Below the pieces are notes generated by a model. The model ran no database searches. It was not told the origin of the DNA and saw only the letters and a program-made list of their open reading frames with translations. This document shows, piece by piece, positions 12,644-62,926 of a stretch of DNA of 64,000 nt. Each line of letters starts with the position of its first letter. The stretch's first letter is position 1. The translations under genes were made by a program, and so were the position numbers. Location of the stretch: the NCBI GenBank assembly GCA_022823465.1, contig JAJEHX010000053.1, forward strand, positions 62,001 through 126,000. The letters are read 5' to 3'. The stretch is from Candidatus Latescibacterota bacterium (lineage in GTDB: Bacteria > JAAXHH01).

Positions 12644-12678
12644 CCAAGTCCAGGATCACTCGTCCAAGTCCAGGATCA
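12644..12678. repeat. Duplicated 3' end of the lactonase gene, 20-bp period
   Basis: CCAAGTCCAGGATCA occurs exactly at 12644-12658 and 12664-12678. The second copy encodes the final Leu-Asp-Leu-Asp of the lactonase-like protein. The first copy starts at its stop codon (TGA at 12656-12658, minus strand) and runs outward. Confidence 0.8.
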
Positions 12679-13672
12679 TCACCCAGGCCGGTGACGGTCC
12701 GACATCGTATACGTCAAGGGGCGCAAGGACGCCTGTATTTTGGTCGACGCGATAGGCGGCCAGCTTTCCGTTTGCCTGCCCCGCGGCGTAAAGAAACCTT
12801 CCCCGTGGATCCAGGTTGAAGGCCCGCGGCGTCTCTTCTGTAGGCGCCTGGCCGATGGGGTCGAGCAGGCCCGTAACCGGATCGGTCGCGAAACCGGCGA
12901 TGCTGTCGTGCCCCCGGTTGCTGGCGTACACCCACCGTCCCGATGGATGGATATGGATCTGCGAGCAGGTGTTTTCACCGGTGAAGTCCGAAGGCAAAGT
13001 CGATACCGTCTGCAGCGCCTCCAGCGTCCCCCGCTCCGGGTCGAACCGGTAGGCCGTCATGCTGCTTCCCTGTTCATTGTCGGCGTAGAGCACGTTCAGC
13101 GTGGGATGGTGACAGTAATGCCTGGGCCCCGTATCCGGGGGCTGGACCACACGGGGCGGATCGTTCGGAGTCAGCTTACCCGTGCCTTCGTCGAACCTGA
13201 ACTGGCAGATCATGTTCGATTCGGCGACGTGGGGCACGAAGGCGAACCGGTTCGACGCGTCCGTCTGTATGTAGTGTGCGCATCGGGCCGTCTCCCGCCG
13301 GTCCACGGGCGGCGCCTGGACTATGCCGTCCGCTCCGATGGCATGAACACCCGCCACGGGGTGACCGTAGGACGCGGAGAGCAGAAAGCGCCCGGTATTG
13401 TCCAGGGCCATATAGGTCGTGTCCCAATCGAAGGGCGTGGAGCCCAGCAGGGAAATCCCTCCCGTCGTCCGGTCCAGGCTGTAGGTCTGTACCGAGGGCA
13501 CGCCCCGCAGTCCGGCGTAGAGACGCTGATGGGCCGCGTCCACCACGAGGGGCATCACGCCGGCGCCCGCGGCGACGTCCTCCCTGAAGGCGAGCCCTCC
13601 CGTGTCCGGGTCCATTTCGTATATGGCGATTTTACCCTCGCCGGTGATGGACAGGTACATATACGAGGCCAT
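12656..13672 (-). CDS. Lactonase (YbhE/6-phosphogluconolactonase-like) beta-propeller
   Basis: This 338-residue protein is a seven-bladed propeller of the Pgl/YbhE lactonase family. Repeated blades carry GRFLLSASYG, HPSGRWVYASNRGHDSIAGF, FNLDPRGRFLYAAGQ and NGKLAAYRVDQNTG. Family members hydrolyse 6-phosphogluconolactone or related sugar lactones, or act on unidentified metabolites. Start 13672 is chosen because GGAAGGGAG lies seven bases upstream and the protein then begins at blade one. The longer frame to 13783 adds unrelated residues. There is no signal peptide. Confidence 0.87.
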   Translation of the reverse strand: MASYMYLSITGEGKIAIYEMDPDTGGLAFREDVAAGAGVMPLVVDAAHQRLYAGLRGVPSVQTYSLDRTTGGISLLGSTPFDWDTTYMALDNTGRFLLSASYGHPVAGVHAIGADGIVQAPPVDRRETARCAHYIQTDASNRFAFVPHVAESNMICQFRFDEGTGKLTPNDPPRVVQPPDTGPRHYCHHPTLNVLYADNEQGSSMTAYRFDPERGTLEALQTVSTLPSDFTGENTCSQIHIHPSGRWVYASNRGHDSIAGFATDPVTGLLDPIGQAPTEETPRAFNLDPRGRFLYAAGQANGKLAAYRVDQNTGVLAPLDVYDVGPSPAWVMILDLDE

Positions 13673-13772
13673 CGAGCGCTCCCTTCCAGCACGGCCGCAT
13701 CCCGTCGTGTCGCGGCATTCAGAGTACGAAGTTTGATCGGAAAACAGAAAAGACAATGTGCAGGTCGTCCGG

Positions 13773-13864
13773 CGGACCGTCAAGCCTCAATTGCCCGGAT
13801 CAGCGCTTCCTGGCGATGCGGACCGTCAAGCCTCAGTTGCCCGGATCAGCGCTTCCTGGCGATG
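13773..13864. repeat. 46-bp perfect-period tandem duplication at the end of the DUF4382 gene
   Basis: Copies 13773-13818 and 13819-13864 differ at one base. The second includes the last codons and stop of the lipoprotein gene (stop at 13846, minus strand). The first is a non-coding copy beyond the stop. Confidence 0.92.
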
Positions 13865-14718
13865 GCGTCCTGGCGCGTCGTACTGGCGGTGGTCACCACG
13901 ACGTTCTCCGTTGCCCAGGCCTCGGTGTCCTCCGTGGGGGGACCGTACATGGCGTAGGATCCGGCGGGCATGAAGTAGGCCGAGTACTGGCCGTTTTCGT
14001 CGGAATAGACCGTCACCGAATCCGTCCTGCCGGGTTGAAACAGGGTTACGGGGTAGCCGCTCAGCGGCACGTCGTCCCGGAGGACCGACGGCGTGCCGTT
14101 GTCGTGCTTGACGCTCCCGGAAACCTGCCCGGAACTCGCCAGGTCGACCAGGCGGCCTACCGGCGTGAATCTCATCCCGGTAATGTCGTGGACCCGCTGG
14201 GTATCGCCCTCTAACGCGATCGAACGCACCAGGTCGAAATCGATCACGGCGTCCGCCTTCCTGCCGCGCTCGACGACCGCCGGGGTGTTTGTTTCGACGA
14301 TCATCTCCCTGCCCTGCGGATCCGTATACACCTCATTGAACTCAACGCCGTTCAGCAAGGTCACGGTGACTTCGTGGATGTTCAGGCGCGCGGCGTCGTA
14401 TCTGCCCTCGGCCAGGGAGAACACTTCCAGGACCCGCGTGCTGCTTCCCCCCAGTTCGAGCAGATCGACGGTATGGCGTAACGTGCCGGGCGTTCCGTAC
14501 TCGCTGTTCGCGGTGGACCGAACGGACACGCCCGACATGGCCACTACGACCGATCGGACGTGGCGCCGGACCGGTGTCTGAGCCGCCAGGCGCAACTGCA
14601 GGTCACTGATGACGTTCGAAGTCGATTTATCGCAACCGGAAGTAGCGATCATCGCGATCACCAGGAACGCGATCATCGGGAAAAGGACCAGAAGATAATG
14701 ATGGATTCGTTTATTCAT
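13846..14718 (-). CDS. DUF4382-type lipoprotein
   Basis: This 290-residue protein has a lipoprotein signal: hydrophobic stretch YLLVLFPMIAFLVIAMIA then lipobox ATSGC. The mature part fits DUF4382 (VRSVVVAMSGVSVR, VDLLEL, GRYDAARLNIHEVTVTLLNG) followed by a carboxypeptidase-regulatory-like beta-sandwich (PLSGYPVTLFQPG, DENGQYSAYFMPAGSYAMYG). It should be a surface- or periplasm-anchored protein of unknown function. A 46-bp tandem copy of its 3' end lies beyond the stop. The region upstream (14719-15034) holds a promoter and a 27-bp repeat but no gene. Confidence 0.8.
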   Translation of the reverse strand: MNKRIHHYLLVLFPMIAFLVIAMIATSGCDKSTSNVISDLQLRLAAQTPVRRHVRSVVVAMSGVSVRSTANSEYGTPGTLRHTVDLLELGGSSTRVLEVFSLAEGRYDAARLNIHEVTVTLLNGVEFNEVYTDPQGREMIVETNTPAVVERGRKADAVIDFDLVRSIALEGDTQRVHDITGMRFTPVGRLVDLASSGQVSGSVKHDNGTPSVLRDDVPLSGYPVTLFQPGRTDSVTVYSDENGQYSAYFMPAGSYAMYGPPTEDTEAWATENVVVTTASTTRQDAIARKR

Positions 14719-14823
14719 GGTCCGGAACGGCCCTGAAATCCTGCGCGGGCTGCTGATTCAAACCTGTTCTGTTAACGGTTCTGCAAACGGATCCGCCTGG
14801 AAGATACAGTTTCTAGACGTCTA

Positions 14824-14850
14824 TGTAAACTTATTCCTTTTAAGCAGTTA
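14824..14850. repeat. 27-bp direct repeat, left copy, flanking the ABC cassette
   Basis: TGTAAACTTATTCC followed by TTTTAAGCAGTTA recurs at 17744-17770 with one mismatch, 2,920 bp away. The sequences after both copies also share scattered similarity, including TTTCATTTT about 130 bp later. The two copies bracket the DUF3299-ATPase-permease cassette. Confidence 0.85.
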
Positions 14851-14970
14851 ACACGATTTTCCGGAGCTTCGGCCACCGTATCTCCGATCGCGGGCGGGTA
14901 AGGCGCCTGATAAGCCACAGAATCCTTTAAGCGTCTGTCGTATCAAATAACTTCGGGCTTTCATTTTGTA

Positions 14971-14999
14971 TTGCCAAAGCGTTCGCTTTTACCTATAAC
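14971..14999 (+). promoter_or_regulatory. Sigma-70-type promoter for the ABC cassette
   Basis: TTGCCA (14971-14976), a 17-bp spacer and TATAAC (14994-14999) sit about 35 bp before the DUF3299 gene, which starts at 15035 with GGAG in its leader. Confidence 0.6.
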
Positions 15000-15034
15000 T
15001 ATCGGACTGAGAACTTCACAACCGGAGTTTTTCG

Positions 15035-15526: not shown

Positions 15527-15625
15527 TCCGCGATGCGGACACCTGCATGAATTGAGCGCGCGCACTCGCTGAGACGAGAACCCGCGGTTTTTTGTGGAGC
15601 TACGCTTCGCAGGGACAAACCATAG

Positions 15626-21842: not shown

Positions 21843-22250
21843 TCAAAGGTATTTCATCATACCAACGATCAGTGCGGACATGCTGATCATACAGACCAGC
21901 ATCTTGTTGACGGCGCTGCTGATCTGCTTTTCCAGGTCCGATTTCATCGCTGCCATCTCGGCTCTCAATACTTTCAGATCTTCCCTCGTTGCGAACCGTT
22001 CCATTTTCGCATTTAGCGAATCTTTAAGTACCTCCAGGTCTTCCTTGGTCGCAAACCCAGCCAGGTCTTCCTTGGTCGCAAACCCAGCCAGATCTTCCTT
22101 CGTCGCGAATTCGGCCAGATCTTCCTTCGTCACCAGGTCGTTCCGGCTCCACGCCATCGCATTGACGATGGCTTCCGCCTGCTTCGTCTCAATGCCCGCG
22201 GCTTCGAATTCGCGGACCGTGGCGTGCGTATCAATGGGATAGTAGGACAC
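21843..22250 (-). CDS. DUF1640-like coiled-coil membrane-anchored protein
   Basis: This 135-residue protein begins IDTHATVREFEAAGIETKQAEAIVNAM, the opening of the DUF1640/CCDC90-like family. It continues with a coiled coil made of repeated FATKEDLAG units (about residues 40-75) and a C-terminal membrane helix (KMLVCMISMSALIVGMMKYL). The coiled-coil repeats are encoded by near-identical 30-bp units (about 22035-22140). Related proteins in mitochondria regulate the calcium uniporter, but bacterial roles are unknown. Confidence 0.75.
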   Translation of the reverse strand: MSYYPIDTHATVREFEAAGIETKQAEAIVNAMAWSRNDLVTKEDLAEFATKEDLAGFATKEDLAGFATKEDLEVLKDSLNAKMERFATREDLKVLRAEMAAMKSDLEKQISSAVNKMLVCMISMSALIVGMMKYL

Positions 22251-27710: not shown

Positions 27711-27761
27711 TCGGGGTCACGTCAGACTCGGGGTCACGCCAGACTCGGGATCACGCCAGCC
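27711..27761. repeat. 17-bp tandem repeat x3 at the yqeC 3' end
   Basis: Units at 27711, 27728 and 27745 (TCGGGGTCACGCCAGAC with 1-3 changes). The third contains the last codons and stop of yqeC (stop at 27751, minus strand) and the other two lie beyond it. Confidence 0.9.
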
Positions 27762-28533
27762 GGGCCACCACCGCCTTCGACCGCCGTATATCCCCGCCGT
27801 AGATCCCCTCGAAGACTGAACCGGGCACGGCTTCGACGATACGACGGGCCAAATTCAGGCTTTCCTCGTCGCCAGCACAAGACAGATACAGCGAAAGGGG
27901 CACGGCATCCGGGAAGGCCCGGCGGTAGGCCTCGGGATGACTGACCACCCCGGCAATCACCTCGGGTGTCACCGCCGCGTCCGGTCCCAGCCCCGACAGC
28001 ATCGCCACGCGCTCCGGCCGGTGCACCTGCCGGTCGTTCAGGCGAAGCCCCACGGATTTCAGGCTGGCGACGATCACCCCCCGCGTCGTCCCCACAGGCA
28101 CCACGGGTTCGTGGTCCCCGGGCGCCTTGAACAGCCGGGCGCGGGCGCCGTCGGCCTTCATGAGTAGCAGGTCGGGGGCGCAGACTTCCCGCAAAGTCCC
28201 CAGTTCCTCCGCGTCCAACCCCTTGAGCTTGTCGGGCCGGGGCCGGGCGCCCAGGACGGTCACGTGGCGGCGGGTTTTCAGTTCGCGGGGAACAACCGTT
28301 GGCCAGTCCGGCATTTCGTCGGTCACGTAGAACCCGCGCGTCTGCGTCGACGTGGGCGGATGCAGGTGCGTGGTGGACGTCGTGATGACCGCGTAACCCC
28401 GGTCGCCGGCCTCGCCGGCCAGCCGGTACATCAGCGTGGCCTTGCCTCCGCTGCCGACGATGGCCACGGCGTCTCCCCTGCGAATCCCGAGCGCGTCAAG
28501 AAAGGGCGTCTCCGGTGCCTGTCCACTCACCAT
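27751..28533 (-). CDS. yqeC: YqeC-family selenium-dependent molybdenum hydroxylase accessory protein
   Basis: This 260-residue protein matches YqeC: GDAVAIVGSGGKATLMYRLAGEA, TTSTTHLHPP, LLMKADGARARLFKAPGDHEPVVP and GVIVASLKSVGL. The family is linked genetically to selenium-dependent molybdenum hydroxylases. The P-loop position after Lys is usually Thr and is Ala here (GGKAT), which may affect nucleotide binding. No selenium, molybdenum-cofactor or hydroxylase gene is in the window. Its start codon overlaps a duplicated copy of the rhomboid gene's stop. Confidence 0.82.
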   Translation of the reverse strand: MVSGQAPETPFLDALGIRRGDAVAIVGSGGKATLMYRLAGEAGDRGYAVITTSTTHLHPPTSTQTRGFYVTDEMPDWPTVVPRELKTRRHVTVLGARPRPDKLKGLDAEELGTLREVCAPDLLLMKADGARARLFKAPGDHEPVVPVGTTRGVIVASLKSVGLRLNDRQVHRPERVAMLSGLGPDAAVTPEVIAGVVSHPEAYRRAFPDAVPLSLYLSCAGDEESLNLARRIVEAVPGSVFEGIYGGDIRRSKAVVARLA

Positions 28534-28622
28534 TCGCCCCCGGGATTGATATGGATCGCGTCCAGAAACGGCGTTTCCGCTGATTCAACGATCACCATTC
28601 GCCCCCGGGATTGATATGGATC
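28493..28622. repeat. 65-bp tandem duplication across the rhomboid-yqeC junction
   Basis: 28493-28557 and 28558-28622 align without gaps. The last 32 bases (28527-28558 versus 28592-28623) are identical and the first 34 agree at about 24. Each copy carries the 3' end of rhomboid (INPGGEW-stop) overlapping an ATG that reads into an ETPFLDA segment of yqeC. Confidence 0.92.
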
Positions 28623-29314
28623 GTCCGGGGCCGGCGCTGCAGGAAGCGCCGCACGAGGACCATCCCCACCAGGAATCCGCCGATATGGGCGTACCAGGCC
28701 ACGCCGTCGCTGCCGATGCCCAGGATCTGCCGCAGGAACCAGATCCCGAGTACGATGATCGCGGGGACGTGGATGATCTGGATGAAGATGAACAGCAGGA
28801 TGAAGGTCTTGATGTAGGCCCGGGGATACAGGATGAAGTAGGCGCCCAGGATACCCGCGATGGCCCCGCTGGCGCCGATCATCGGGATGGCGGAATCGGG
28901 CTCGGAGATCACGTGCACCATGGTGGCGCACAGGCCGGTCAGGATGTAGAAAAGCAGGTAGCGGACCGGGCCCATGGCGCTTTCCACGCTGTTGCCGAAG
29001 ATCCACAGGTACAGCATGTTGCCGGCAAGGTGCATGAAGCCCCCGTGCACGAACATGGCCGTGAACAGGGTCAGGGGGAAGGGCACGAGGGCGTCGGGAT
29101 AGAGCAGGGAAGTGCCCGGGATGGGAATGGTGTCCCGGTCGACGAAATGCGTAAGCTCCAGGGGAATGGCCGCCGTCTTGAAGATGAAGATCTGCTCGCC
29201 CACCGGGCCCTGTACCCACTGGAAGAGGAAGACGGCCACGTTGGCGGCGAGCAGCGCGTAGGTGACGACGGGCCGGGAAAAGGACGGGCTTTCAGCCTGG
29301 AGCGGTAGGAGCAT
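28592..29314 (-). CDS. Rhomboid-family intramembrane serine protease
   Basis: This 240-residue protein has at least six membrane helices. Rhomboid signatures are FVHGGFMHLAGNMLYLWIFGN (helix 2 His/Asn), the catalytic Ser in GASGAIAG and the catalytic His in YAHIGGFLVG. The N-terminal region includes a loop (ELTHFVDRDT) common in the GlpG-like group. It cleaves membrane substrates within the bilayer; targets are unknown. The stop overlaps an ATG, pointing to original translational coupling with yqeC before the 65-bp duplication intervened. Confidence 0.93.
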   Translation of the reverse strand: MLLPLQAESPSFSRPVVTYALLAANVAVFLFQWVQGPVGEQIFIFKTAAIPLELTHFVDRDTIPIPGTSLLYPDALVPFPLTLFTAMFVHGGFMHLAGNMLYLWIFGNSVESAMGPVRYLLFYILTGLCATMVHVISEPDSAIPMIGASGAIAGILGAYFILYPRAYIKTFILLFIFIQIIHVPAIIVLGIWFLRQILGIGSDGVAWYAHIGGFLVGMVLVRRFLQRRPRTIHINPGGEW

Positions 29315-29350: not shown

Positions 29351-29390
29351 GGACGGAGGTGCGATCCGGACGGAGATGCGATCCGGACGG
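29351..29390. repeat. 17-bp tandem repeat, two full copies
   Basis: GGACGGAGGTGCGATCC at 29351-29367 and a one-mismatch copy at 29368-29384, then GGACGG, in the uvrB-rhomboid spacer. Confidence 0.8.
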
Positions 29391-37300: not shown

Positions 37301-37420
37301 CGCGGCTCCTCTTACAAGGCGTGACCCTTCTTGCAGGACGCGGCTCCTCCTACGACCATTCCGCGATCAACTGGCGGCAGCGCAACTCAACTCCATTCCG
37401 TGATCAACTGGCGACAGCGC
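37301..37420. repeat. Duplicated 3' end of the binding-protein gene, plus a 38-bp spacer repeat
   Basis: 37356-37383 and 37393-37420 match at 26 of 28 bases. The second lies in the coding 3' end (stop at 37387, minus strand) and the first lies beyond it. CGCGGCTCCT also recurs at 37301 and 37339. Confidence 0.88.
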
Positions 37421-38766
37421 CGCGCGATCCGGGCGAGGCCGTCGCGGGGAGATTGCTGCCCCAGGAGGACCTTCTGAATCTCCGGCTGGTAGTAGATCTT
37501 GAAATCGGGGAACCAGGGCGCCTTGATGTTCTCCCGCGGCCGGACGTGCAGGGCCTGCTCCCGGATCTTGTCGATCTCGCCCCACTGCTCGGTCTGGGCG
37601 ATCACCTCCGGATCGTCCAGCAGCGACCGGTAGGCGAAACCCAGTCCCCGCAGCCGGAACCAGCGCCGCGCGGTGTAGTATTCTCCAGCCGCGTCTTTCG
37701 CGCCCAGGAACTTCATCAACGCCCACGCGTCCTGCATCCGGTCTTCCCGGCACCGCGACGTCAGGCTGTACATGCGCGTCCAGCCGAGGGTGCCATGCTG
37801 CTCCGCCGAGATCGAGGGGACCGGCGCCATCCGGTACACCTTCGCGTGCAGCGCGTCGGAACCTCTTCGCTTCAGTTCCTCGTCCGCGGCGACTGAATTC
37901 CGGCGGTTGTTCGCGTACTCCAGGTCGTACTTGTTGAGGATGCCGTATACCTGCCGCCCGCCCGCGACATGATCCCGCATCTGGCCCACGGTCAGCGAGG
38001 AGGGAGAGATGATGCGGTGACGGTTGATCCCGTCCGTGAGCCATTGAAGGATCGTCTCGGCCCGGCGGTCTTCGTCATCGGGAAACGTGGGGTTGAGATC
38101 GTCGTCGAACAGCGATATCTCGCTGGCGTAGTTGAGGGTCCACCAGTCTGCGAACCCGAGCACGCTCTGCCGGAAGTTCAGCATGATCGGATACTCGATG
38201 ACGTCCCCGTCCGGCGTGCGGACCCGGGCTTCCCGGACCTTGATGGCTTGCTCCGTCAATTCGTCCAGCGTGCGGGCCGGCGCGTCGAACCCCGCCGCCT
38301 CCAGCATGGACGCGTTGTATATCCAGATGTTGAAATCGGTATAGTAAGGCAGCCCGTACCGTTTCCCGCCGTAGGTCATGGACGACAGGTTGTAGGGAAA
38401 AAGATCCGCGGTCGTCTCCGACGTGTCGGGATCGGCGGCCAGGAGGTCGTCGCAGGGCCGCAGCCAGCCGGCTTCGACCCATTCGGCGAAATCGTCGTCG
38501 CGGACGTAACAGCATTCCATGGGCGCCCCGCCCACGTGCAGCGCCACCATTTTGTCGTGGTAGTTGCCCGACACCGCGTTGTAGTCCACCTTGATGCCGG
38601 TCTGCCGTTCGAAGTAGTCCAGGTTTTCCCGGACCAGGCCGGGCTCGTAGACCCAGCCCTTGAAGATGACGCCGGGCGACGGCGACGGGCTGCAGCCGGC
38701 CATCAGGCCCAGGCCCGCGGCGGTCGAGGACTGGAGAAATGTACGGCGCGTCATCCGGGATTTCAC
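37387..38766 (-). CDS. Extracellular solute-binding protein, Tat-secreted lipoprotein
   Basis: This 459-residue protein has a Tat motif (RRTFLQSSTAAGLGLMAGC, residues about 7-25) and a lipobox ending in Cys, so it is exported folded and lipid-anchored. The mature part fits carbohydrate-type binding proteins: LDYFERQTGIKVDYNAVSGNYHDKMVALHVGGAPMECCYV and GLPYYTDFNIWIYNASML. It is the ligand receptor of the following permeases and ATPase. Sugar identity is unknown. Confidence 0.92.
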   Translation of the reverse strand: MKSRMTRRTFLQSSTAAGLGLMAGCSPSPSPGVIFKGWVYEPGLVRENLDYFERQTGIKVDYNAVSGNYHDKMVALHVGGAPMECCYVRDDDFAEWVEAGWLRPCDDLLAADPDTSETTADLFPYNLSSMTYGGKRYGLPYYTDFNIWIYNASMLEAAGFDAPARTLDELTEQAIKVREARVRTPDGDVIEYPIMLNFRQSVLGFADWWTLNYASEISLFDDDLNPTFPDDEDRRAETILQWLTDGINRHRIISPSSLTVGQMRDHVAGGRQVYGILNKYDLEYANNRRNSVAADEELKRRGSDALHAKVYRMAPVPSISAEQHGTLGWTRMYSLTSRCREDRMQDAWALMKFLGAKDAAGEYYTARRWFRLRGLGFAYRSLLDDPEVIAQTEQWGEIDKIREQALHVRPRENIKAPWFPDFKIYYQPEIQKVLLGQQSPRDGLARIARRCRQLITEWS

Positions 38767-38781: not shown

Positions 38782-38813
38782 TTGGAATCGAGTCTTATTG
38801 GAATCGAGTCTTG
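38782..38813. repeat. 16-bp tandem repeat upstream of the binding-protein gene
   Basis: TTGGAATCGAGTCTTA and TTGGAATCGAGTCTTG at 38782 and 38798 lie in the leader of the binding-protein gene. No other gene is seen in 38767-38901. Confidence 0.85.
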
Positions 38814-38874: not shown

Positions 38875-38930
38875 GCGCACGCCGGACAGAGGTCGGTGTT
38901 ATCAAGCGCAGGCTGGACAGCGGTCCGTGT
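38875..38930. repeat. Duplicated 3' end of the MORN-protein gene
   Basis: 38875-38899 repeats 38906-38930 at 21 of 25 bases. The latter encodes the last CPAC knuckle and precedes the stop (38902, minus strand). The former would spell another CPAC beyond the stop. Confidence 0.8.
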
Positions 38931-39354
38931 CGGGGTCGTGGATGGGATCGCCGCAGGCGGAGCACGGTCCAAGGGGATGCTCGTCGGGCTGAGTGCGCGT
39001 GCCGTGCTTGTACGTGATGGTCCGCCAGACCGTCTCACCGTCCTTCGCCGAATAGCACAGCCACCGGCCTTCCTTCTTGCCGTCGTAGGATTTGCCCAGG
39101 TGGGGGCCGTAGTCGCCTTCCCACTGCCTGGTCCCGTTCTCGTGCCAGCAGGTGTACCAGCCTTCGTTGAGGCCGTTCTTGAACCTGCCCTCGCTCTTCT
39201 TGTTGCCGTTACTGAAGTACTGGATCCAGTTCCCGTCCTTCACGCCCATCTCGTAATTGCCCTCGCTACGCTTGTTGCCGTTGGCGTAGTAGGTGATCCA
39301 GTAGCCGTGTTTTTTACCGTTTACAGTCTTGCCTTCGGAAAGGGCCATGGTCAT
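38902..39354 (-). CDS. MORN/YwqK-repeat protein with C-terminal zinc ribbon
   Basis: This 150-residue protein has about four MORN-type repeats (GKKHGYWITYYANGNKRSEGNY; GVKDGNWIQYFSNGNKKSEGRF; GLNEGWYTCWHENGTRQWEGDY; GKKEGRWLCYSAKDGETVW). It ends with two Cys-x-x-Cys knuckles (CSACG and CPAC), a probable zinc ribbon. MORN/YwqK proteins are often toxin-immunity or binding scaffolds; the role here is unknown. ATG 39354 or 39348 begins the repeat region. The longer frame to 39399 has another CTTC motif but a poor start. Confidence 0.75.
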   Translation of the reverse strand: MTMALSEGKTVNGKKHGYWITYYANGNKRSEGNYEMGVKDGNWIQYFSNGNKKSEGRFKNGLNEGWYTCWHENGTRQWEGDYGPHLGKSYDGKKEGRWLCYSAKDGETVWRTITYKHGTRTQPDEHPLGPCSACGDPIHDPDTDRCPACA

Positions 39355-40415: not shown

Positions 40416-40503
40416 CCGCTGCTGATGCGGACGCGCTCCTCCCTACACCACTCTCCTAAACCGCGTCCTCTCCCCGTTCCCCGCTGCTGATGCGGACGCT
40501 CTC
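40416..40503. repeat. Duplicated 3' end of the PII gene, 65-bp period
   Basis: 40416-40438 and 40481-40503 match at 22 of 23 bases. The second encodes the SVRISS region of PII and the first lies beyond its stop (40456, minus strand). Confidence 0.88.
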
Positions 40504-40800
40504 TTCCACGGGAACGACGAAGATCTTTCCGTCTCCCGTCCGGTCGCCTCCGGACTGGGCAGCCTTCCAAATCACATCGACGATCTCGTCCTTCTGATCG
40601 TTGGTGACCGCGATCTCCATGCGGATCTTGGCCGCGAGGGGGATATCGACTTCCTGCCCCCGGTAGAGACCCCTGCGGTGGGCGGTGCGGCCATGCCCCG
40701 ACACCCTGGACAGGGTCATGCCGGGGATACCTTTCTCGACGAGCGCGTTCCGGACGTCGTCGAGCTTCTCCGGTCTGATGATGGCTATGATCAGTTTCAT
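40456..40800 (-). CDS. Nitrogen regulatory protein P-II, lacking Tyr51
   Basis: This 114-residue PII protein has the family core: MKLIIAIIRPEKLDDVRNAL, GMTLSRVSGHGR, a T-loop (RTAHRRGLYRGQEVDIPLAAK) and GDGKIFVVPVEESVRI. The position that is uridylylated in E. coli GlnB (Tyr51, after RGAE) is Val51 here; Tyr46 is present. Covalent control by GlnD at that site is therefore unlikely, leaving ATP/ADP/2-oxoglutarate sensing. It is followed upstream by amtB, the usual partner it would block. Confidence 0.93.
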   Translation of the reverse strand: MKLIIAIIRPEKLDDVRNALVEKGIPGMTLSRVSGHGRTAHRRGLYRGQEVDIPLAAKIRMEIAVTNDQKDEIVDVIWKAAQSGGDRTGDGKIFVVPVEESVRISSGERGEDAV

Positions 40801-47907: not shown

Positions 47908-47946
47908 AAACGGTTACTCGAAACGGTTACTCGAAATGGTTGCTGG
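47908..47946. repeat. 13-bp tandem repeat x3 in the tpx leader
   Basis: AAACGGTTACTCG at 47908 and 47921, with a diverged third copy at 47934. Confidence 0.85.
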
Positions 47947-48137
47947 AAACAGTGCTAAATCAGGTACAAACAAAGGTTTTTGGGCATGTCTGTCACGCCG
48001 CGCGTCGAATCTCACACGGTTTCCTCAATCTCGCGCGTGCTTCCTCAAAGGGCGGACACCCTCAAACTAGCGGCTTCCTCCAAGGGCGGGAGTGGTCTGC
48101 CGACACCGGCGCAACCTAAGCGCGGGCGCCACCGCTG

Positions 48138-51839: not shown

Positions 51840-51899
51840 TCAATCCGCGCAGGCGGTGAGGCGACCGCCTCCCAGTCAGTCCGCGTAGGCGGCCAGGCG
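51840..51899. repeat. Duplicated 3' end of the sigma-70 gene
   Basis: 51840-51863 and 51876-51899 match at 20 of 24 bases. The latter holds the last codons and stop (51876, minus strand) and the former lies beyond it. A hairpin AGGCGGT/ACCGCCT at 51851-51870 lacks a U-tract. Confidence 0.82.
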
Positions 51900-52742
51900 C
51901 GTGCCTTTGCGGGTGTGGCGCAGTTTGTTGATGGCCTTCTGCTTGATCTGGCGGATCCGTTCCCGCGTCAGGCCGAACCGCACCCCGATCTCCTCGAGGG
52001 TGTAGGTCCGGTCGGAATTCAGACCGAAGTAGAGGTTCAACACTTCGCTCTCGCGGTCGGACAGGGTCGAAACCGCGCGCCTCACCTCGTTCCGCAACAG
52101 CGCTTCCTGCAGTTCCTCGTCCGGCATCTTGCTGTCCTGGTCCCTGAGCCGGTCCATCAGGGTATAGGCGTCCTGGTCGCCGATCGGCGCGTCCAGCGAG
52201 AGCGGCGTGCTCGCCCATTCCGGCATGGCGGGATGGCGGCCGAGGTCCGCGCCCGGCTCCTCGTTCGCGTCGGACCCATCGTCGGAAGCGGCCTGCGCGT
52301 TCGCCCGCTCGGTTTCCTTTTTCTTGATGGAACGCTCGATCCGGCGCAACTCCTCGATCTTGTTGACGGGGAGACGGATCAACCGGGCCTGTTCGGCCAG
52401 GGCGTGGAGAATGGCCTGCCGGATCCACCAGACGGCGTAGGAGATGAATTTGAATCCCTTCTTCTCGTCGAACCGCCGGGCGGCCTTCATCAGGCCCATG
52501 TTCCCTTCGCTGATCAGGTCGGAAAGGGCAAGCCCCTGGTTCTGGTATTGCTTCGCCACGGCCACGACGAAACGCAAGTTCGCGTGGACCATGGTCTCCA
52601 GGGCCTTCTCGTCCCCATCCCGGATGCGACGGGCGAGTTCCTCCTCATCCTCTGGTGTAAGCAGTTCCGTATCCCCGATTTCCTTCAGGTAGATGTCCAG
52701 GGCCTGGTCATCTCGAACCTGGATCTTCTTGGTCAGCTTCAT
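51876..52742 (-). CDS. rpoD: RNA polymerase sigma-70 factor (primary-type), atypical region 3
   Basis: This 288-residue sigma factor has region 1.2 (DDQALDIYLKEIGDTELLTPEDEEELARRI), 2.1-2.4 (ANLRFVVAVAKQYQNQGLALSDLISEGNMGLMKAARRFDEKKGFKFISYAVWWIRQAI) and region 4 (EVLNLYFGLNSDRTYTLEEIGVRFGLTRERIRQIKQKAINKLR). Region 3 is abnormal: the usual 'P-x-EEIA' helix-turn-helix is replaced by an acidic low-complexity linker (about 145-178). The short N-terminus fits FCB-type RpoD. AGGAGGT precedes the ATG. It is either the housekeeping sigma or a group 2 paralogue. Confidence 0.92.
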   Translation of the reverse strand: MKLTKKIQVRDDQALDIYLKEIGDTELLTPEDEEELARRIRDGDEKALETMVHANLRFVVAVAKQYQNQGLALSDLISEGNMGLMKAARRFDEKKGFKFISYAVWWIRQAILHALAEQARLIRLPVNKIEELRRIERSIKKKETERANAQAASDDGSDANEEPGADLGRHPAMPEWASTPLSLDAPIGDQDAYTLMDRLRDQDSKMPDEELQEALLRNEVRRAVSTLSDRESEVLNLYFGLNSDRTYTLEEIGVRFGLTRERIRQIKQKAINKLRHTRKGTRLAAYAD

Positions 52743-57138: not shown

Positions 57139-58311
57139 ATGGCACAAGACCGCACCGCAGATCCCTTCGCCATCACGCTCGGCGTCGAGGAAGAGTTCTT
57201 CCTGGTCGATCCGAAAACGCGGGACCTGCTGTCCGACCCCGATCCTCGGATCTTCCAGGAGTGCGAAAAGAACCGCGGGGACCACCAGGTCGTGGCGGAA
57301 TTCCTCCGGTCCCAGATCGAAACCACGACGCGGGTCTGCTCGTCCGTGGCGGACGTGCAGGCCGCTCTGATCGAAACCCGCCGCCTCGTCATCGACGCTG
57401 CGGCGAAACACGGCGCCTCCGTCATGGCGGCGTCCACCCACCCCTTCGCCGCCTGGCATCAGCAGGTCCCTACGGCGGAACAGCGCTACGAACAGTTCGC
57501 CATGACCTACCAGCAGGCCGTCCGGGAACTGCTCGTGGGCGGGATGCACATCCACGCGGGGTTCGGCGACGGAAACAGCCGTGTGCGGGTCATGACGGCG
57601 ATGCGGCGATACCTGCCCCTGCTTCACGCGCTCTCCGCCTCTTCCCCTTTCAGCAGCGGGCGGGAAACCGGTTTCAAGTCCTACCGCCTGACCCTCTTCG
57701 GCAGCATGCCGCGCACGGGGCTGCCCGGGCCGCTGCACTCCTGGGCGGAATTCGAGAACCTGGTCGAAGACTACCGGAGGATGGAGTTCATTCAGGACAG
57801 CAGCGAACTCTGGTGGGACATCCGTCCTTCCCGGGCCTTCCCCACCCTGGAACTGCGCATCTGCGACATCTGCCAGACCGTGGACGACGCCCTGTGCGTG
57901 GTGGCGCTCTACGCCTGCCTGGTAAGGTACCTGCTCAGACTGGATATGGAGAACCGCCTTCCGCCCGAACCACCGACGGAACTGATCAAGGAGAACTGCT
58001 GGCTCGCCCAGCGGTACGGCGTGGTCGCCTTCCTGGGCGACACCGAGGGATCGGGCCGCCTGGATATCGACGAGTACGCCGGCGCCCTGGTCGATGAACT
58101 GTCCGACGACGCAAAGGCCCTGGGGTGCGCGGACGAACTGCGCCACCTCCTGGACCTCATCCGGTACGGTACCGGGTCGGACCGGCAGATCGACCACTAC
58201 CGCCTGCGCCGCCTCGAAGGGGATTCGGAGGAGGAAGCCCTGCGCGCCGTGGTGGATCTCGTGGTCGAAGAGACCGGAAGCGGCCTGGATCGAAAGGGGA
58301 CCGAATCATGA
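57139..58311 (+). CDS. YbdK-family carboxylate-amine ligase (GCS2)
   Basis: This 390-residue protein belongs to the glutamate-cysteine ligase type 2 / YbdK family: ITLGVEEEFFLVDPKTRDL, GMHIHAGFGDGNSRVRVM, SSELWWDIRPSRAFPTLELRICD. It ligates an amine to a carboxylate with ATP; natural substrate is uncertain. The stop overlaps the ATG of the next gene (ATGA). Confidence 0.92.
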   Translation: MAQDRTADPFAITLGVEEEFFLVDPKTRDLLSDPDPRIFQECEKNRGDHQVVAEFLRSQIETTTRVCSSVADVQAALIETRRLVIDAAAKHGASVMAASTHPFAAWHQQVPTAEQRYEQFAMTYQQAVRELLVGGMHIHAGFGDGNSRVRVMTAMRRYLPLLHALSASSPFSSGRETGFKSYRLTLFGSMPRTGLPGPLHSWAEFENLVEDYRRMEFIQDSSELWWDIRPSRAFPTLELRICDICQTVDDALCVVALYACLVRYLLRLDMENRLPPEPPTELIKENCWLAQRYGVVAFLGDTEGSGRLDIDEYAGALVDELSDDAKALGCADELRHLLDLIRYGTGSDRQIDHYRLRRLEGDSEEEALRAVVDLVVEETGSGLDRKGTES

Positions 58312-58346
58312 AATATCGCGTTGCGATCATGAAGTATAACATTGCG
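58305..58346. repeat. In-frame 21-bp duplication of the OMP start region
   Basis: 58305-58325 and 58326-58346 match at 17 of 21 bases, giving ATC-ATG-AA(A/G)-TAT twice. The OMP therefore has two possible starts (58308 and 58329). Confidence 0.8.
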
Positions 58347-59225
58347 GCCATAGCCCTCTGCCTGGCGATGGTTTCTATCACTGGCCGCGCAGCCGCCCAG
58401 GACGGCTGGTACCTTCGGACCAATCTGGGCGTCGCCGTGGCGCCCGGCCTGACGCTCGACGCCCGGGACAACGACTGGAGCACCCGGTGCGACAAGATTT
58501 CCAATCCGGGACTGGGCGAGACGAGCGCGGATGAATGCGCGAGCGTACCGCCGATCACGGCGTGGAGCCACGAAGTCGGCGGAGGCAACGGGGTGCAGAG
58601 CGTGCTTGCCCTGGGTTACGGTTGGAGCGGGCTGCGGGTCGAAGGGGAGTACATCTACCGGACCACGACCTATGGACAAGGCGCGGGCGAGTCGCAGGTT
58701 ATCGACGAGATAACGCAGCAGAAGCAGCGCCAGGAAATCGAAACGATCGACGGCGGACTCGAGGACCTGCTAGCCCATGGCGTCTTCGCCAACGTGTATT
58801 ACGACTTCCAGACGAGCACCGCCTGGACGCCCTACTTCGGGGTCGGCGTGGGGCTCGCCAGCACTTCCCTTGACTATTACGGGCGTTTCAAACGCAATGA
58901 CGATCCGGACGCAATCTCGACCTTCGAAGATCCCCTGCGGAAGGCGCGGATTGCCGGAACGACCACCATAGGCCGGCACAAGCTGAACGATACGCTGACC
59001 GCCTACCAGGCTGTCCTGGGCGCGGACTATGCGCTGAGCGAAAAAGTGGGAATAGGCCTCAAGGTCCGCTGGGCGAAGTTCAGCGAATTCGACGCCGGGG
59101 ACAGGTGGACGCAGCTCCGCAGCCACGAGTCGTCGGTCGGACGGGGTTTCGACGTCATATACTACGTCTCGACCGACAAAATCATGCTGTTCGGCGCCAG
59201 CCTGAACATGACGTATAACTTCTGA
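58308..59225 (+). CDS. Outer-membrane beta-barrel protein (OmpW/opacity-like)
   Basis: This 305-residue protein has a signal peptide (IAAIALCLAMVSITGRAAAQ, from the second start) and amphipathic strands ending in LNMTYNF with a terminal Phe, the usual Bam signal. Two cysteines near the N-terminus (TRCDK and DECAS) may form a disulfide. ATG 58308 overlaps the ligase stop; ATG 58329 begins the cleaner signal peptide. Function unknown. Confidence 0.8.
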   Translation: MKYRVAIMKYNIAAIALCLAMVSITGRAAAQDGWYLRTNLGVAVAPGLTLDARDNDWSTRCDKISNPGLGETSADECASVPPITAWSHEVGGGNGVQSVLALGYGWSGLRVEGEYIYRTTTYGQGAGESQVIDEITQQKQRQEIETIDGGLEDLLAHGVFANVYYDFQTSTAWTPYFGVGVGLASTSLDYYGRFKRNDDPDAISTFEDPLRKARIAGTTTIGRHKLNDTLTAYQAVLGADYALSEKVGIGLKVRWAKFSEFDAGDRWTQLRSHESSVGRGFDVIYYVSTDKIMLFGASLNMTYNF

Positions 59226-59268
59226 TGCGGTCACCCTGAATATGACGTACAGCTTCTGATTCGGTCAC
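59201..59268. repeat. 34-bp tandem duplication of the OMP 3' end
   Basis: 59201-59234 and 59235-59268 match at 30 of 34 bases. The first holds the last OMP codons and TGA; the second would spell LNMTYSF and a stop again. Confidence 0.92.
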
Positions 59269-59419
59269 CCTGCAGGCGAATCTGTTGCCGCCACCTGTGG
59301 ATCAGCGTGAGATGGTCCTGATGCTCACGGACGAACTGACTGATCGTCCTGCCCGAATCTGTTTCCTGGAGCACCTGGAGCTTGAACTCGCGGGTGAACT
59401 GACGGCGTTTCAGGGACAT
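59231..59419 (-). pseudogene. IS3/IS911-type transposase OrfA remnant
   Basis: The 62-residue frame starts MSLKRRQFTREFKLQVLQE and contains the helix-turn-helix of IS3-family OrfA (REHQDHLTLIHRWRQQ). Normal OrfA is about 100 residues with a leucine zipper; this one runs into the duplicated OMP end after residue 48 and lacks it. No OrfB or terminal inverted repeats are seen, so it is a decayed fragment. The AT-rich spacer 59420-59686 beyond it shows no gene. Confidence 0.8.
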
Positions 59420-59686: not shown

Positions 59687-61384
59687 ATGGATGGACTCTC
59701 GCTTCAAGGGATAGCCGAACTGTTTGGTATCCAGAGCGCACTGGATCACCAGGGATCCTTGCTGTCCCTGGGGTTGTTGATCATAGTCGCCAAGTTGATC
59801 GAGGGCGTATTCCGCCGTTTGCGCCTGAAGTCGATTGTCGCCTACGCGACGGCGGGCATCCTCCTGGGTCCCGTTCTCAAGTTGTCCGGCGTCTGGTGGA
59901 TCGAGTCTTCACTGCCCCTCGAATTGATGCTGACGCTGGGCATTTTCCTGTTCTTTTTCCTGATTGGAATCGACGAGGTTGACATATCCAGCTTCATGTC
60001 CTCCATCGGCGGACGCTACTTCATCGCCGCCATTCTATCCGTAGTCTGCTCTTTGGGGACCGCCCTGCTGGTCACTACGGAATTCGTTTTCGATTTCGGA
60101 CTACGACTGAGTTTCATGGAATCGCTGGCCCTGGCCGGCGTGCTGTCGATGACCAGCCTGGGCATTGTGGCCAAAGTGCTTACCGACGACGGTCAACTGA
60201 ACAAACCGATCGGGCTGCAGATTTTCACGGTGGTGATCATCGCCGAGCTGCTCGTGTTGCTGGTGATCGGGTTCAGCATAGGGGAACACACTCAGGAGGT
60301 ATCCGCAGTCGGGATACTGGTTTTGCTGGCGAAAATCGCCGGCTTCACGGTGGTGTCCTGGGTTTTTATGTCCCGGGGACTGCCTCCGGTGATCGCGTTG
60401 CTGCAGCGGGTAATCCAGGTACCGCAGCTTTCGCTGGGCCTGCTGCTCGGCGTGCTGTTCCTGATGGTCTTCGGTGCTGAAATGGTGGGCTTGCACGGCA
60501 CACTGGGGGCATTGCTGTTCGGCGCATCGCTGTCGGGGTTGTCCTTTCACGTGCGGCGTGAGATCATCCCCGGGCTCCGCAGCGTCGCGGACGGTCTGTT
60601 CGTACCCCTCTTCTTCGCTTCGGCCGGATTGAGCTTCAGTTTCTCTTTCGCGGCCTTGCCGCCATGGACAATGGCCGGATTGGCGCTGATCCCGTTGCTG
60701 GGAAACTTCGCCGGCGCTTTCATCGGCGCCTATGTTTCCCGCCTCACGGTCCCGTACGCCGTCGCTACCGGGCTGATGGGGAAAGGCGTGGCGGAGATCG
60801 CCCTGCTGCTTGTCCTGTGGAATTCGGGAATCATCGACGAGGACGTGTTCTCCTTCCTGGTGCTGGTGATGATCGGTTACATCTTTCTCATGCCGCCGGT
60901 GATCAGCTACACGGTAAACCGGGCCAGTCGCCGGATCGACGTGCCGAACGAGCTGGACGACCTTCCGCAGGGCATCTCCCGGTTCGTGTTGGATCACATC
61001 ACGGTTGACGACATCCTGGACCGGACGCAGCGGCATCCGACCCCCGAACTCTCGGTGGGCGACCTCGCCGAACATTGGATGTCCTCCCAGCAGCACGACT
61101 ATGTTGTGGTCGATGGTGACGGTATGGTCGGCATCGTCTCCGTGGAGATGCTCAGATACCTGCCCAAGGGTTCGTGGTCCGAAACCCCCCTCGAAAACGT
61201 AATGCGCCGGGAACCCCCGCTGGCCTGGCCCGACGAGCAAATCGAAGATGTGTTGCAACGAATGTCCGAGCACTCCGTTTCCGTGATGCCGGTCGTGGAA
61301 CGGGAATCCGAAGCGTTTCTGGGATCCATTACCAGAAGCGATATCGTGGAACTCATGGTCGCGCAGGCCACCGGCGAGCATTAG
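59687..61384 (+). CDS. CPA2-family cation:proton antiporter with CBS-domain pair
   Basis: This 565-residue protein has about 12 membrane helices of the KefB/Na+-H+ exchanger type (AYATAGILLGPVLKLSG; FLFFFLIGIDEVD; LSMTSLGIVAKVL; GLMGKGVAEIALLLVLWNSG). It then has two cytoplasmic CBS motifs (about 445-560; WMSSQQHDYVVVDGDGMVGIVSVEML and VMPVVERESEAFLGSITRSDIVELMV) that may sense adenine nucleotides. The preceding 270 bp are AT-rich. Confidence 0.9.
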   Translation: MDGLSLQGIAELFGIQSALDHQGSLLSLGLLIIVAKLIEGVFRRLRLKSIVAYATAGILLGPVLKLSGVWWIESSLPLELMLTLGIFLFFFLIGIDEVDISSFMSSIGGRYFIAAILSVVCSLGTALLVTTEFVFDFGLRLSFMESLALAGVLSMTSLGIVAKVLTDDGQLNKPIGLQIFTVVIIAELLVLLVIGFSIGEHTQEVSAVGILVLLAKIAGFTVVSWVFMSRGLPPVIALLQRVIQVPQLSLGLLLGVLFLMVFGAEMVGLHGTLGALLFGASLSGLSFHVRREIIPGLRSVADGLFVPLFFASAGLSFSFSFAALPPWTMAGLALIPLLGNFAGAFIGAYVSRLTVPYAVATGLMGKGVAEIALLLVLWNSGIIDEDVFSFLVLVMIGYIFLMPPVISYTVNRASRRIDVPNELDDLPQGISRFVLDHITVDDILDRTQRHPTPELSVGDLAEHWMSSQQHDYVVVDGDGMVGIVSVEMLRYLPKGSWSETPLENVMRREPPLAWPDEQIEDVLQRMSEHSVSVMPVVERESEAFLGSITRSDIVELMVAQATGEH

Positions 61385-61501
61385 GGTGACGGCTTCTCCC
61401 ACATTGCCAGCTCGATTTCCGATGTCGCCGGAATGGTCTCCGCAAGGCAATCCGAAACGCCGTCACAATTGATCTGAGCTCAACCAGGGAGGACGGTAGC
61501 A

Positions 61502-62905
61502 ATGTTGACACGATGTCAGATCTTCCGGCCGATATCCCTGGTGACGGCGGCGGGCTTGCTGGTGGCAACCCTGGGCATGGCGTGTCGGGACGGGCAGGAA
61601 GAAACCACGCAAAACAACAGCGCGGGAGCAACGACTTCGCCGCCCAACGCAACGACTGCGCCGCCGGAGGCAACGACCGCGCCGCCTAGTGCAACGACTG
61701 CGCCGCCGGAGGCAGCGACTGCGCCGCCGGAGGCAACGACTGCGCCGCCTAGCGCAACAACGGAGCATGAACGCGTAAGAAGTCCGGGGGTTTCCGACGC
61801 CCAAGTCCTATTCGGCCAGTCCGCCGCTTTCTCCGGGCCGGCCCGGGAACTGGGCAGGCAGATGCGCCTGGGCATCGAGGCGGCGTTTCACGAGGCCAAT
61901 CAGGCGGGCGGCGTCCATGGCCGCCGGTTGAAGCTCGAGACCATGGACGATGCATACGAAGACGACTATGCCTATACCAACACCGAGCAGTTGATCGAGA
62001 ACAACGAGGTATTCGCCCTTGTCGGAGCCGTCGGTACGCCCACCTCCCGTGCGGCATCCCCGCTGGCGCACGCGGCCGGGGTGCCCTTTCTGGGCCCGTT
62101 TACCGGCGCGGAGTTCCTGCGAGACCCACGCCTGGACAACGTGCTCAACTTCCGCGCCTCGTACTACCAGGAAACCGAGGAGATGGTGGCCCGTCTCACC
62201 GCGGACCTGGGCGTAACGCGCGTCGCCGTGCTCTACCAGGACGATTCTTACGGCCAGAACGGACTGGAGGGTACGCGGCTGGCTCTGGAACGCCGGGAAC
62301 TGAAACCGGTCGCGTCCTGGCACTACCCGCGCAATACCAGCGCCGTGAAGGGGGCCGCACTCAGGATCATTGCGGCAAATCCGGAGGCCGTCATCATGAT
62401 TGGCTCCTATGCCCCGGTCGTCAGGACGATCGAATTGGTACGGCGCGAATTGGACCCGGTACTTATGGCCGTTTCATTCGTGGGCAGCAACGCGCTGGCC
62501 GACGCCCTGGGCGAGGACGGCGCCGGCGTCTACGTTACGCAAGTGGTTCCGTTGCCGCGAGACGGCGGCATCCCGGTGGTCGCCCGCTATCACAGCGCGA
62601 TATCCGAGTACGAGCCCGGGGCGGAGCCAGGGTTCGTTTCGCTGGAGGGCTACCTGGCAGGCCGTCTGGCCGTCGCCGGTCTCGAAACCTGCGGCCCGGA
62701 ACTCAGTCGCGAATGTTTCCTCCGATCTTTGCAGGACGCTGAAACCATAGATATCGACGGCATTCAACTGAAATACGGTCCCGGCGACAACCAGGGTTCC
62801 GATACCGTGTTCCTGACCGTAATCGGCGCCGATGGGAAGTACCACCAGGTCGAGAAACTCGGAGACCCTTATCCGGGAAGTCCCAGGACTACTCCAGCAC
62901 CTTGA
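61502..62905 (+). CDS. Branched-chain-amino-acid-type ABC substrate-binding lipoprotein
   Basis: This 467-residue protein has a lipoprotein signal (ISLVTAAGLLVATLGMAC), then a Thr/Pro/Ala-rich linker with eight-residue repeats (TTAPPSA/TTAPPEA, about 40-90), and a Peripla_BP_6 ligand domain (VLFGQSAAFSGPARELGRQMRLGIEAAFHEANQAGGVHGRRLKLETMDD). No permease or ATPase gene is adjacent, so it is an orphan receptor. GGAGG before ATG 61502 is good. Confidence 0.9.
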   Translation: MLTRCQIFRPISLVTAAGLLVATLGMACRDGQEETTQNNSAGATTSPPNATTAPPEATTAPPSATTAPPEAATAPPEATTAPPSATTEHERVRSPGVSDAQVLFGQSAAFSGPARELGRQMRLGIEAAFHEANQAGGVHGRRLKLETMDDAYEDDYAYTNTEQLIENNEVFALVGAVGTPTSRAASPLAHAAGVPFLGPFTGAEFLRDPRLDNVLNFRASYYQETEEMVARLTADLGVTRVAVLYQDDSYGQNGLEGTRLALERRELKPVASWHYPRNTSAVKGAALRIIAANPEAVIMIGSYAPVVRTIELVRRELDPVLMAVSFVGSNALADALGEDGAGVYVTQVVPLPRDGGIPVVARYHSAISEYEPGAEPGFVSLEGYLAGRLAVAGLETCGPELSRECFLRSLQDAETIDIDGIQLKYGPGDNQGSDTVFLTVIGADGKYHQVEKLGDPYPGSPRTTPAP

Positions 62906-62926
62906 TGGACTAGGACTACTACAGCA
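62885..62926. repeat. Duplicated 3' end of the binding-lipoprotein gene
   Basis: AGGACTACTCCAGCA at 62885-62899 recurs with one change at 62912-62926. The gene's TGA lies between (62903-62905). Confidence 0.82.

What the first reader, a model, noticed from the sequence alone, without database searches (positions are those of the whole stretch)
12644..62926. Window-wide habit: gene 3' ends tandemly duplicated beyond the stop codon
In at least ten genes a 15-46 bp segment at or spanning the stop recurs just beyond it: lactonase (12644-12678), DUF4382 (13773-13864), yqeC (27711-27761), rhomboid (28493-28622), binding protein (37356-37420), MORN (38875-38930), PII (40416-40503), rpoD (51840-51899), OMP (59201-59268) and binding lipoprotein (62885-62926). 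Periods range from 17 to 65 bp and copies are diverged, so events are independent and of different ages. Many other spacers hold similar arrays (36, 26, 18, 17, 16 and 13 bp). I know of no described mechanism that targets gene ends this way.
Basis: seen in the sequence. Interest (0 to 1): 0.8.

Follow-up and report, generated by a model that had tools for sequence, protein, structure and literature searches.

The report
Tandem duplications surviving at gene ends
This group of bacteria carries many more short back-to-back DNA copies than most other bacteria sampled, and copies that straddle the end of a gene survive because the gene still stops at the first copy, so the gene-end pattern is real but probably not a device that aims at gene ends.

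Summary
All ten listed gene ends carry a tandem copy across or beside the stop (0 of 300 shuffles each at penalty 2); 7 of 10 pass a stricter cut-off. It is not confined to the window: 82 of 1,267 stops (6.5%) versus 14 of 1,264 starts (1.1%) in samples of six genomes of the genus, against 8 of 1,626 and 2 of 1,630 in controls. Copy number differs between orthologues, also in two relatives assembled in 7 and 9 contigs.

Targeting of gene ends is not supported. Coverage shows no spike at the stop; it is highest 15-90 bp downstream and runs a little into the coding end. Spacer, in-gene, stop and start duplications are all above control. Inside genes 98 of 103 periods are multiples of three; at stops 16 of 60: selection filters. 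Copies are direct, local, and in 23 of 51 recent cases flanked by 4 bp or more of homology, as in ABA-to-ABABA slippage. MutS, MutL, RecJ, ExoVII and the PolA 5' nuclease are present in the genus members checked; SbcD reaches its cut-off in 0 of 12 genus genomes but in 4 of 4 family/order relatives, a correlate only.

The parts
12644..12678 (-). lactonase (12656-13672 -) 3' end: 20-bp tandem copy; the stop is made at the junction with copy 2
   Evidence: by eye single in G001, G005, G007, G010
13772..13864 (-). DUF4382 gene (13846-14718 -) 3' end: two 46-bp copies, 46 of 47 matches
   Evidence: by eye different duplications at the same end in G005, G007 and G010, single in G001
27711..27759 (-). 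yqeC gene (27751-28533 -) 3' end: about three copies of 17 bp
   Evidence: by eye not in G001, G005, G007, G008, G010
28527..28623 (-). rhomboid stop / yqeC start junction: 32 bp repeated exactly with period 65
   Evidence: by eye about three copies of the junction in G001, a 9-bp array in G005, single in G007, G008, G010
37356..37420 (-). SBP_bac_1 gene (37387-38766 -) 3' end: two copies of a 37-bp unit, 26 of 28 matches
   Evidence: about three copies in G001 and G005, one in G007, G008, G010
38875..38930 (-). MORN_2 gene (38902-39354 -) 3' end: diverged copy, period 31, 21 of 25 matches
   Evidence: 0 of 300 shuffles at penalty 2, 7 of 300 at penalty 3
40416..40507 (-). P-II gene (40456-40800 -) 3' end: 19 bp exact (25 of 27 extended), period 65
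   Evidence: by eye shared with G009, absent in G001, G005, G007, G008, G010
51840..51899 (-). sigma-70 gene (51876-52742 -) 3' end: diverged copy, period 36, 20 of 24 matches
   Evidence: 0 of 300 at penalty 2, 8 of 300 at penalty 3; by eye not in G001, G005, G007, G008, G009; G010 has a short repeat of its own there
59201..59272 (+). outer-membrane barrel gene (58308-59225 +) 3' end: 34-bp unit, 34 of 38 matches, 4 bp shared at the ends
   Evidence: by eye single in G001, G005, G008, G010
62885..62926 (+). Peripla_BP_6 gene (61862-62905 +) 3' end: 14 of 15 matches, period 27
   Evidence: no match in the fetched stretches of relatives
315..384 (.). spacer duplication, 36-bp unit, 13 bp after a stop
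2564..2602 (.). spacer duplication, period 23, 7 bp after a stop
29351..29390 (.). spacer array, 17-bp unit
38782..38812 (.). spacer duplication, 16-bp unit
47908..47950 (.). spacer array, 13-bp unit

Best explanation
An unusually frequent slippage-type tandem duplication process (ABA to ABABA, units roughly 10-80 bp, often bridged by a few bases of homology) acts along the genomes of this genus, and selection decides where products persist. Inside genes mainly in-frame units survive; around starts they upset start and ribosome-site spacing and are mostly lost; across a stop the ribosome still meets an intact gene end and stop in the first copy, so any unit length is tolerated and the second copy becomes 3' untranslated spacer that drifts, expands or is lost. 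Shown: the excess, placement, frame rule, direct-only orientation, flanking homology, and copy-number differences between species. Inferred: replication slippage as the molecular step, neutrality of the copies, selection as the cause of the depletion at starts, and loss of the SbcCD nuclease as a possible contributor.
For: Excess in every class: genus (1,368,533 bp, cut-off 14) 127 spacer, 60 stop-spanning (one also spans a start), 4 start-only, 129 in-gene repeats versus 18, 3, 0, 19 in 1,331,514 bp of 71 loci from other bacteria. Stops 82 of 1,267 versus 8 of 1,626, starts 14 of 1,264 versus 2 of 1,630; one shuffle per boundary gave 0 and 0 in the genus, 1 and 1 in controls. Frame filter: in-gene periods divisible by three 98 of 103 near-tandem repeats; stop-spanning 16 of 60. 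The stop lies in the first copy in 44 of 60, between copies in 7, in the second copy in 9. No spike at the stop; depletion within 30 bp upstream of starts. Direct 194, inverted 0, in 952 spacers (loops of 12 or more only; the same function found 50 of 50 planted inverted repeats). Three within-genome spacer-spacer matches in the sampled stretches of three genomes, so not a dispersed element. Flanking homology: 23 of 51 recent two-copy events have 4 bp or more, 0.8 expected with equal base frequencies. Turnover: 22 and 19 stop-spanning repeats at 331 orthologous ends of G001 and G005, 4 in common, 2 of these with the same period. Size and homology match yeast rad27 insertions: earlier work quoted in PMC5677150 gives 5-108 bp mediated by repeats of 3-12 bp (passages).
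Against: The excess over control is larger at stops (about 13-fold) than in spacers (about 7-fold). Genus END:SPACER 60:127 exceeds the pooled controls 4:45 (Fisher p=0.0005, control counts pooled by hand, one contig counted in both pools), though control repeats may be of other kinds. Duplications are densest in the first 90-120 bp after stops even in long spacers, which a uniform rate explains only if those stretches are the least constrained. Fifteen of 51 recent events show no flanking homology. At the rhomboid junction 32 bp are identical while the rest of the 65-bp unit has diverged, which a single duplication does not explain. No causal gene defect is shown. Density varies inside the genus (2.5 to 13.4 per 100 kb at cut-off 18); stop-spanning repeats are scarce in G007 (1 of 70) and G008 (0 of 47). 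Two distant genomes, G018 (7.9) and G031 (8.8 per 100 kb), reach similar non-coding densities in 50 and 80 kb, with no stop-spanning repeat at cut-off 14, so the excess is not unique to the genus.
Confidence: 0.72

Rival explanations
1. Duplications are made preferentially near transcript 3' ends, for example where transcription termination, hairpins or collisions with RNA polymerase stall the replication fork, giving a mutational hotspot rather than survival bias.
For: Coverage is highest 15-90 bp after stops and falls further out, also in convergent and long spacers. The END fraction exceeds pooled controls. By eye, different duplications occur at the same gene ends in different species: DUF4382 end, rhomboid/yqeC junction.
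Against: In-gene and start-side duplications are raised too. Between G001 and G005 ends with repeats in both are few: 4 versus 1.3 expected, 2 of them with the same period and probably inherited. Weak constraint on 3' untranslated DNA gives the same profile.
Confidence: 0.15
2. The copies are kept because they do something: a spare stop codon, RNA stability, or spacing of neighbouring genes.
For: In 44 of 60 stop-spanning repeats the second copy covers the stop position; orthologous spacer lengths differ by a median of 26 bp between G001 and G005.
Against: Period mod 3 is free (16, 22, 22); many copies are diverged and most are not shared between G001 and G005.
Confidence: 0.06
3. Assembly artefact, or scars of a mobile or repeat element.
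For: Most genomes here are draft assemblies, and repeats are a known assembly risk.
Against: Most copies diverge by point changes; the pattern recurs in assemblies of 7 and 9 contigs and in all three large samples of the genus; almost no spacer sequence recurs elsewhere in the sampled stretches and there are no inverted copies.
Confidence: 0.03

Closest known systems
Tandem repeats of archaeal Borg elements (PMC9879509, passages seen)
   Same: Pervasive direct tandem repeats that arise independently and evolve fast; [quoted passage not shown] units inside ORFs divisible by three; virtually absent from host genomes.
   Different: Borgs are extrachromosomal elements of archaea; that paper counts regions of 3 or more units and 50 nt or more, described as perfect and A-enriched. 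Here 44 of 60 stop-spanning repeats have fewer than 2.5 copies, many are imperfect, A is 19% in and beside them, and the DNA is 62% G+C with housekeeping genes, hence chromosomal (inferred).
Insertions mediated by short direct repeats in yeast rad27/FEN1 mutants (PMC5677150, passages seen)
   Same: ABA to ABABA; B of 1-91 bp and repeat A of 1-21 bp in that paper, 5-108 bp and 3-12 bp in the earlier work it quotes; gains and losses at one locus.
   Different: Laboratory mutant of a eukaryote that also shows simple-repeat and palindrome events; here the PolA 5' nuclease domain is present, its acidic motifs look intact by eye in one genus member (G003; motifs recalled), and no inverted copies were found.
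Bacterial VNTR loci / minisatellites (recalled)
   Same: Tandem units of tens of bp with copy-number change.
   Different: Those are usually few loci with several copies (recalled); here 191 mostly unrelated non-coding repeats in 1.37 Mb, 60 of them across a stop.

Membership tests
Slippage-type (ABA to ABABA) tandem duplication | head-to-tail direct orientation only | tested here: met
   194 direct, 0 inverted in 952 spacers; function checked with planted repeats, 50 of 50 found
Slippage-type (ABA to ABABA) tandem duplication | short homology at the ends of the unit | tested here: met
   23 of 51 recent events with 4 bp or more, 0.8 expected; 15 of 51 have none
Slippage-type (ABA to ABABA) tandem duplication | single-copy state in relatives and copy-number change | tested here: met
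   SBP_bac_1 end has 1, 2 or about 3 copies in six genomes; several other ends are single in relatives, by eye. The exact ABA precursor was not reconstructed
Slippage-type (ABA to ABABA) tandem duplication | arises during replication, independent of RecA | not testable with these tools
   needs mutation accumulation or genetics
   59 versus 35.0; about 1.3-fold once starts are set aside
   maximum 15-90 bp downstream; spread-out position of the stop in the unit
   spacer, in-gene and start classes all raised
Borg-type tandem repeats | three or more perfect, A-rich units on an extrachromosomal element | tested here: not met
   44 of 60 stop-spanning repeats have fewer than 2.5 copies, A 19%; imperfect copies beside housekeeping genes
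Dispersed repeat or mobile element | the same sequence at several places in a genome | tested here: not met
   3 spacer pairs in the sampled stretches of three genomes

The most novel reading that the evidence does not exclude
A bacterial genus in which short tandem duplications are generated preferentially in the 3' untranslated zone of genes by a process tied to transcription termination (perhaps unmasked by loss of SbcCD), so that intergenic DNA grows outward from gene ends.
Probability: 0.13. Interest if true: 0.8.

Novelty: new variant of a known kind. Interest (0 to 1): 0.47.

Why it matters
It points to a natural bacterial lineage with roughly a ten-fold excess of one mutation class over 71 control loci and at least 12 genomes of the genus to compare, so the question of what sets the rate of short tandem duplication in bacteria becomes testable. 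It also shows a simple route by which spacers and 3' untranslated regions may grow: copies of gene ends that cost little because the first stop is kept. It warns annotators that such gene-end copies need no function.

Tried and rejected
Templated (template-switch) insertion was considered because some repeats have an unmatched middle. Inverted copies were absent, and reading the lactonase case against G007 suggested an ordinary duplication with later point changes, so it was dropped. Dispersed elements: rejected. A frame-keeping function of the second copy: rejected by free period mod 3. Repair defects: MutS over its cut-off in 9 of 10 genus genomes searched (the exception G004 is a fragmented draft with a partial hit), MutL, RecJ and ExoVII in 5 of 5 genus genomes searched, PolA 5' nuclease domain in 11 of 12 (exception G004). 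Ku is absent in all 12 genomes searched, so not distinctive. SbcD: over the cut-off in 0 of 12 genus genomes (11 of 12 without any match at E 0.01; G006 a weak one), in 4 of 4 family/order relatives and in 1 of 7 more distant genomes. SbcC reaches its cut-off in 0 of 23, but full-length matches occur in the same 4 relatives and none in the genus; in most genomes only 21 of the first-look candidates were scored. G019, G027 and G038 also lack an over-cut-off SbcD and have few repeats, so loss is not sufficient; it stays a correlate on one branch. In the unit-based null both units were tested against a one-unit expectation, which inflates its END ratio; I use the span-based null instead and take only the frame counts and the stop positions. 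Gene calls come from my own hexamer caller, not a published one; starts are less certain than stops. Periods above 100 bp (80, 120) were not searched. The control loci include L034, which is the same contig as L180 of G013 used; it is left out. Literature: ten searches (one search found nothing, one search listed 15 of 564) showed in their listings no paper on bacterial tandem duplications at gene ends; two papers were opened, by passages only.
Full report
Observation. The ten listed gene ends were read and scored. All ten have a direct repeat across or touching the stop that 0 of 300 shuffles reach at mismatch penalty 2; at penalty 3 MORN (7 of 300) and rpoD (8 of 300) are weaker. Seven of ten pass a stricter cut-off: the window holds 23 such repeats, of which 7 span a gene end by my gene calls. 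Gene names are supported by Pfam.

Is it the genome, the genus, or bacteria at large? The window is G000:C26:62001-126000 of a 3.86-Mb, 55-contig genome. With 20 more stretches (412,533 bp in all) and 478,000 bp each of G001 and G005 of the same genus, stops carry a spanning repeat in 25 of 340, 28 of 366 and 25 of 375; starts in 1 of 338, 6 of 370 and 4 of 370. Smaller samples: G007 1 of 70 stops and 0 of 70 starts, G008 0 of 47 and 1 of 46, G010 3 of 69 and 2 of 70. Genus total 82 of 1,267 stops and 14 of 1,264 starts; controls (nine genomes of other genera and 70 loci of named records) 8 of 1,626 and 2 of 1,630. One shuffle per boundary reached the cut-off 0 times in the genus and once each for stops and starts in the controls. 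Without the window G000 still has 17 of 278 stops.

Enrichment over spacer position. Each repeat not wholly inside a gene was placed at random under the same condition. Seen versus expected: G000 spacer 28/25.5, stop 20/9.9, start 0/10.7, both 1/2.9; G001 62/50.3, 21/15.1, 2/15.7, 0/3.9; G005 37/33.5, 18/10.0, 2/10.4, 0/3.1. The strongest departure is the lack of start-spanning repeats: 59 stops to 4 starts (binomial p about 1e-13). If starts are set aside, the stop excess is about 1.3-fold (59 of 186 against 24%). Some G001 and G005 repeats are inherited from a common ancestor, so rows are not all independent.

Where exactly. Coverage by non-coding repeats relative to the stop is 2.0% at -30 to -15, 3.9% at -15 to 0, 6.5% at 0-15, about 10% at 15-60, 8.9% at 60-90, 6.8% at 90-120 and 4.5% at 120-180. 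Upstream of starts it is 1.0% at 0-15, 3.0% at 15-30, 5.5% at 30-45, about 7% at 45-120, then 5.6% and 4.1%. So there is no spike at the stop; stop-spanning copies are the tail of a 3' zone that is rich in duplications. In spacers of 200-600 bp, at least 50 bp from the next start, coverage is 5-9% in the first 90 bp and 3-4% beyond 120 bp. This bias could be weak constraint or a hotspot; my data do not separate them.

Anatomy. Of 60 stop-spanning repeats the stop is in the first copy in 44, between copies in 7, in the second in 9; periods mod 3 are 16, 22, 22; 44 have fewer than 2.5 copies. In-gene near-tandem repeats are in frame in 98 of 103. This is what selection would leave: frame matters inside a gene and not after its stop. 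Repeats are direct (194) and never inverted (0, loops of 12 or more) in 952 spacers, and spacer sequence hardly recurs elsewhere in the sampled stretches: 3 pairs. The inverted-repeat function found 50 of 50 planted cases. Recent two-copy events have 4 bp or more of shared bases at the ends in 23 of 51, against 0.8 expected; 15 of 51 have none.

Turnover. At the SBP_bac_1 end the window has two 37-bp copies, G001 and G005 about three, G007, G008 and G010 one. At the DUF4382 end the window, G010, G005 and G007 have different duplications and G001 none, by eye. The P-II copy is seen in the window and G009 only. The rpoD copy is in the window and not in G009. Of 331 orthologous ends in G001 and G005 (median protein identity 91.5%), 22 and 19 carry repeats and 4 carry them in both, two with equal period; orthologous spacers differ by a median of 26 bp.

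Rate, not target. At cut-off 18 non-coding repeats number 137 in 1.37 Mb of the genus and 11 in 1.33 Mb of 71 other loci. At cut-off 14 every class is raised: spacer 127 versus 18, stop 60 versus 3, start-only 4 versus 0, in-gene 129 versus 19. Family and order relatives are lower at cut-off 18: G012 0.8, G013 4.5, G014 0 and G015 0 per 100 kb, against 7.0, 13.4 and 9.2 in G000, G001 and G005; G007 has 2.5. G018 (7.9) and G031 (8.8) are unrelated genomes with similar density but no stop-spanning repeat at cut-off 14; at the more sensitive scoring G031 has 1 of 58.

Cause. MutS (9 of 10 genus genomes searched), MutL, RecJ and ExoVII (5 of 5 each) and the PolA 5' nuclease (11 of 12) are present; the exception is the fragmented draft G004. 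SbcD reaches its cut-off in 0 of 12 genus genomes, in 4 of 4 family and order relatives and in 1 of 7 more distant genomes; SbcC shows the same split by full-length matches, none over its cut-off. That is one loss on one branch, and other genomes without an over-cut-off SbcD have few repeats, so it is a lead. A direct effect of SbcCD on such duplications is my hypothesis, not taken from a paper.

Comparison with print. Borg elements show tandem repeats in spacers or starting inside gene ends, in-gene units divisible by three, fast independent origin (PMC9879509, passages). Yeast rad27 mutants gain insertions of the form ABA to ABABA, in earlier work 5-108 bp between repeats of 3-12 bp (PMC5677150, passages). 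The present case works like the second and looks like the first, in bacterial DNA that is chromosomal by its gene content (inferred).

Verdict. Real, found in all three large samples of the genus and strong as a pattern; best read as a high rate of short tandem duplication filtered by selection, which tolerates copies across stops and removes them at starts. A dedicated gene-end mechanism is not needed, though a modest 3' hotspot is not excluded.

Noticed in passing
G000-G011 versus G012-G015: SbcD is below its cut-off in all 12 genus genomes and full-length SbcC matches are missing too, while four family/order relatives have both.
   Followed up: partly
G006:C39:90805-92198: G006 alone in the genus has a weak SbcD-like hit next to a weak SbcC-like hit, perhaps an acquired related nuclease pair.
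   Followed up: no
MutS1 loci, e.g. G005:C3:94935-97646: In G001, G002, G003, G005, G006 and G008 the MutS1 profile match stops near position 784-789 of 840 in frames of 833-979 aa, whereas G000, G007 and G009 match to 840; an insertion or change near the C-terminus is possible.
   Followed up: no
window 28527-28623: 32 bp of the rhomboid/yqeC repeat are identical while the rest of the 65-bp unit has diverged strongly, which suggests nested events or conversion between copies.
   Followed up: no
window 22034-22131 and 61621-61758: Tandem arrays with periods of 27 bp and 21/63 bp, multiples of three; the first lies inside a called gene, the second inside an open frame upstream of my called start.
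   Followed up: no
L034 / G013:C158 (L180): The nearest named record, CAJXCW010000158.1 (uncultured bacterium ERR599008_bin.45, 66% sigma identity), is letter for letter contig C158 of G013.
   Followed up: yes
G012, G015: MutL has no match in G012 and only a fragment in G015, although both show few tandem repeats.
   Followed up: no
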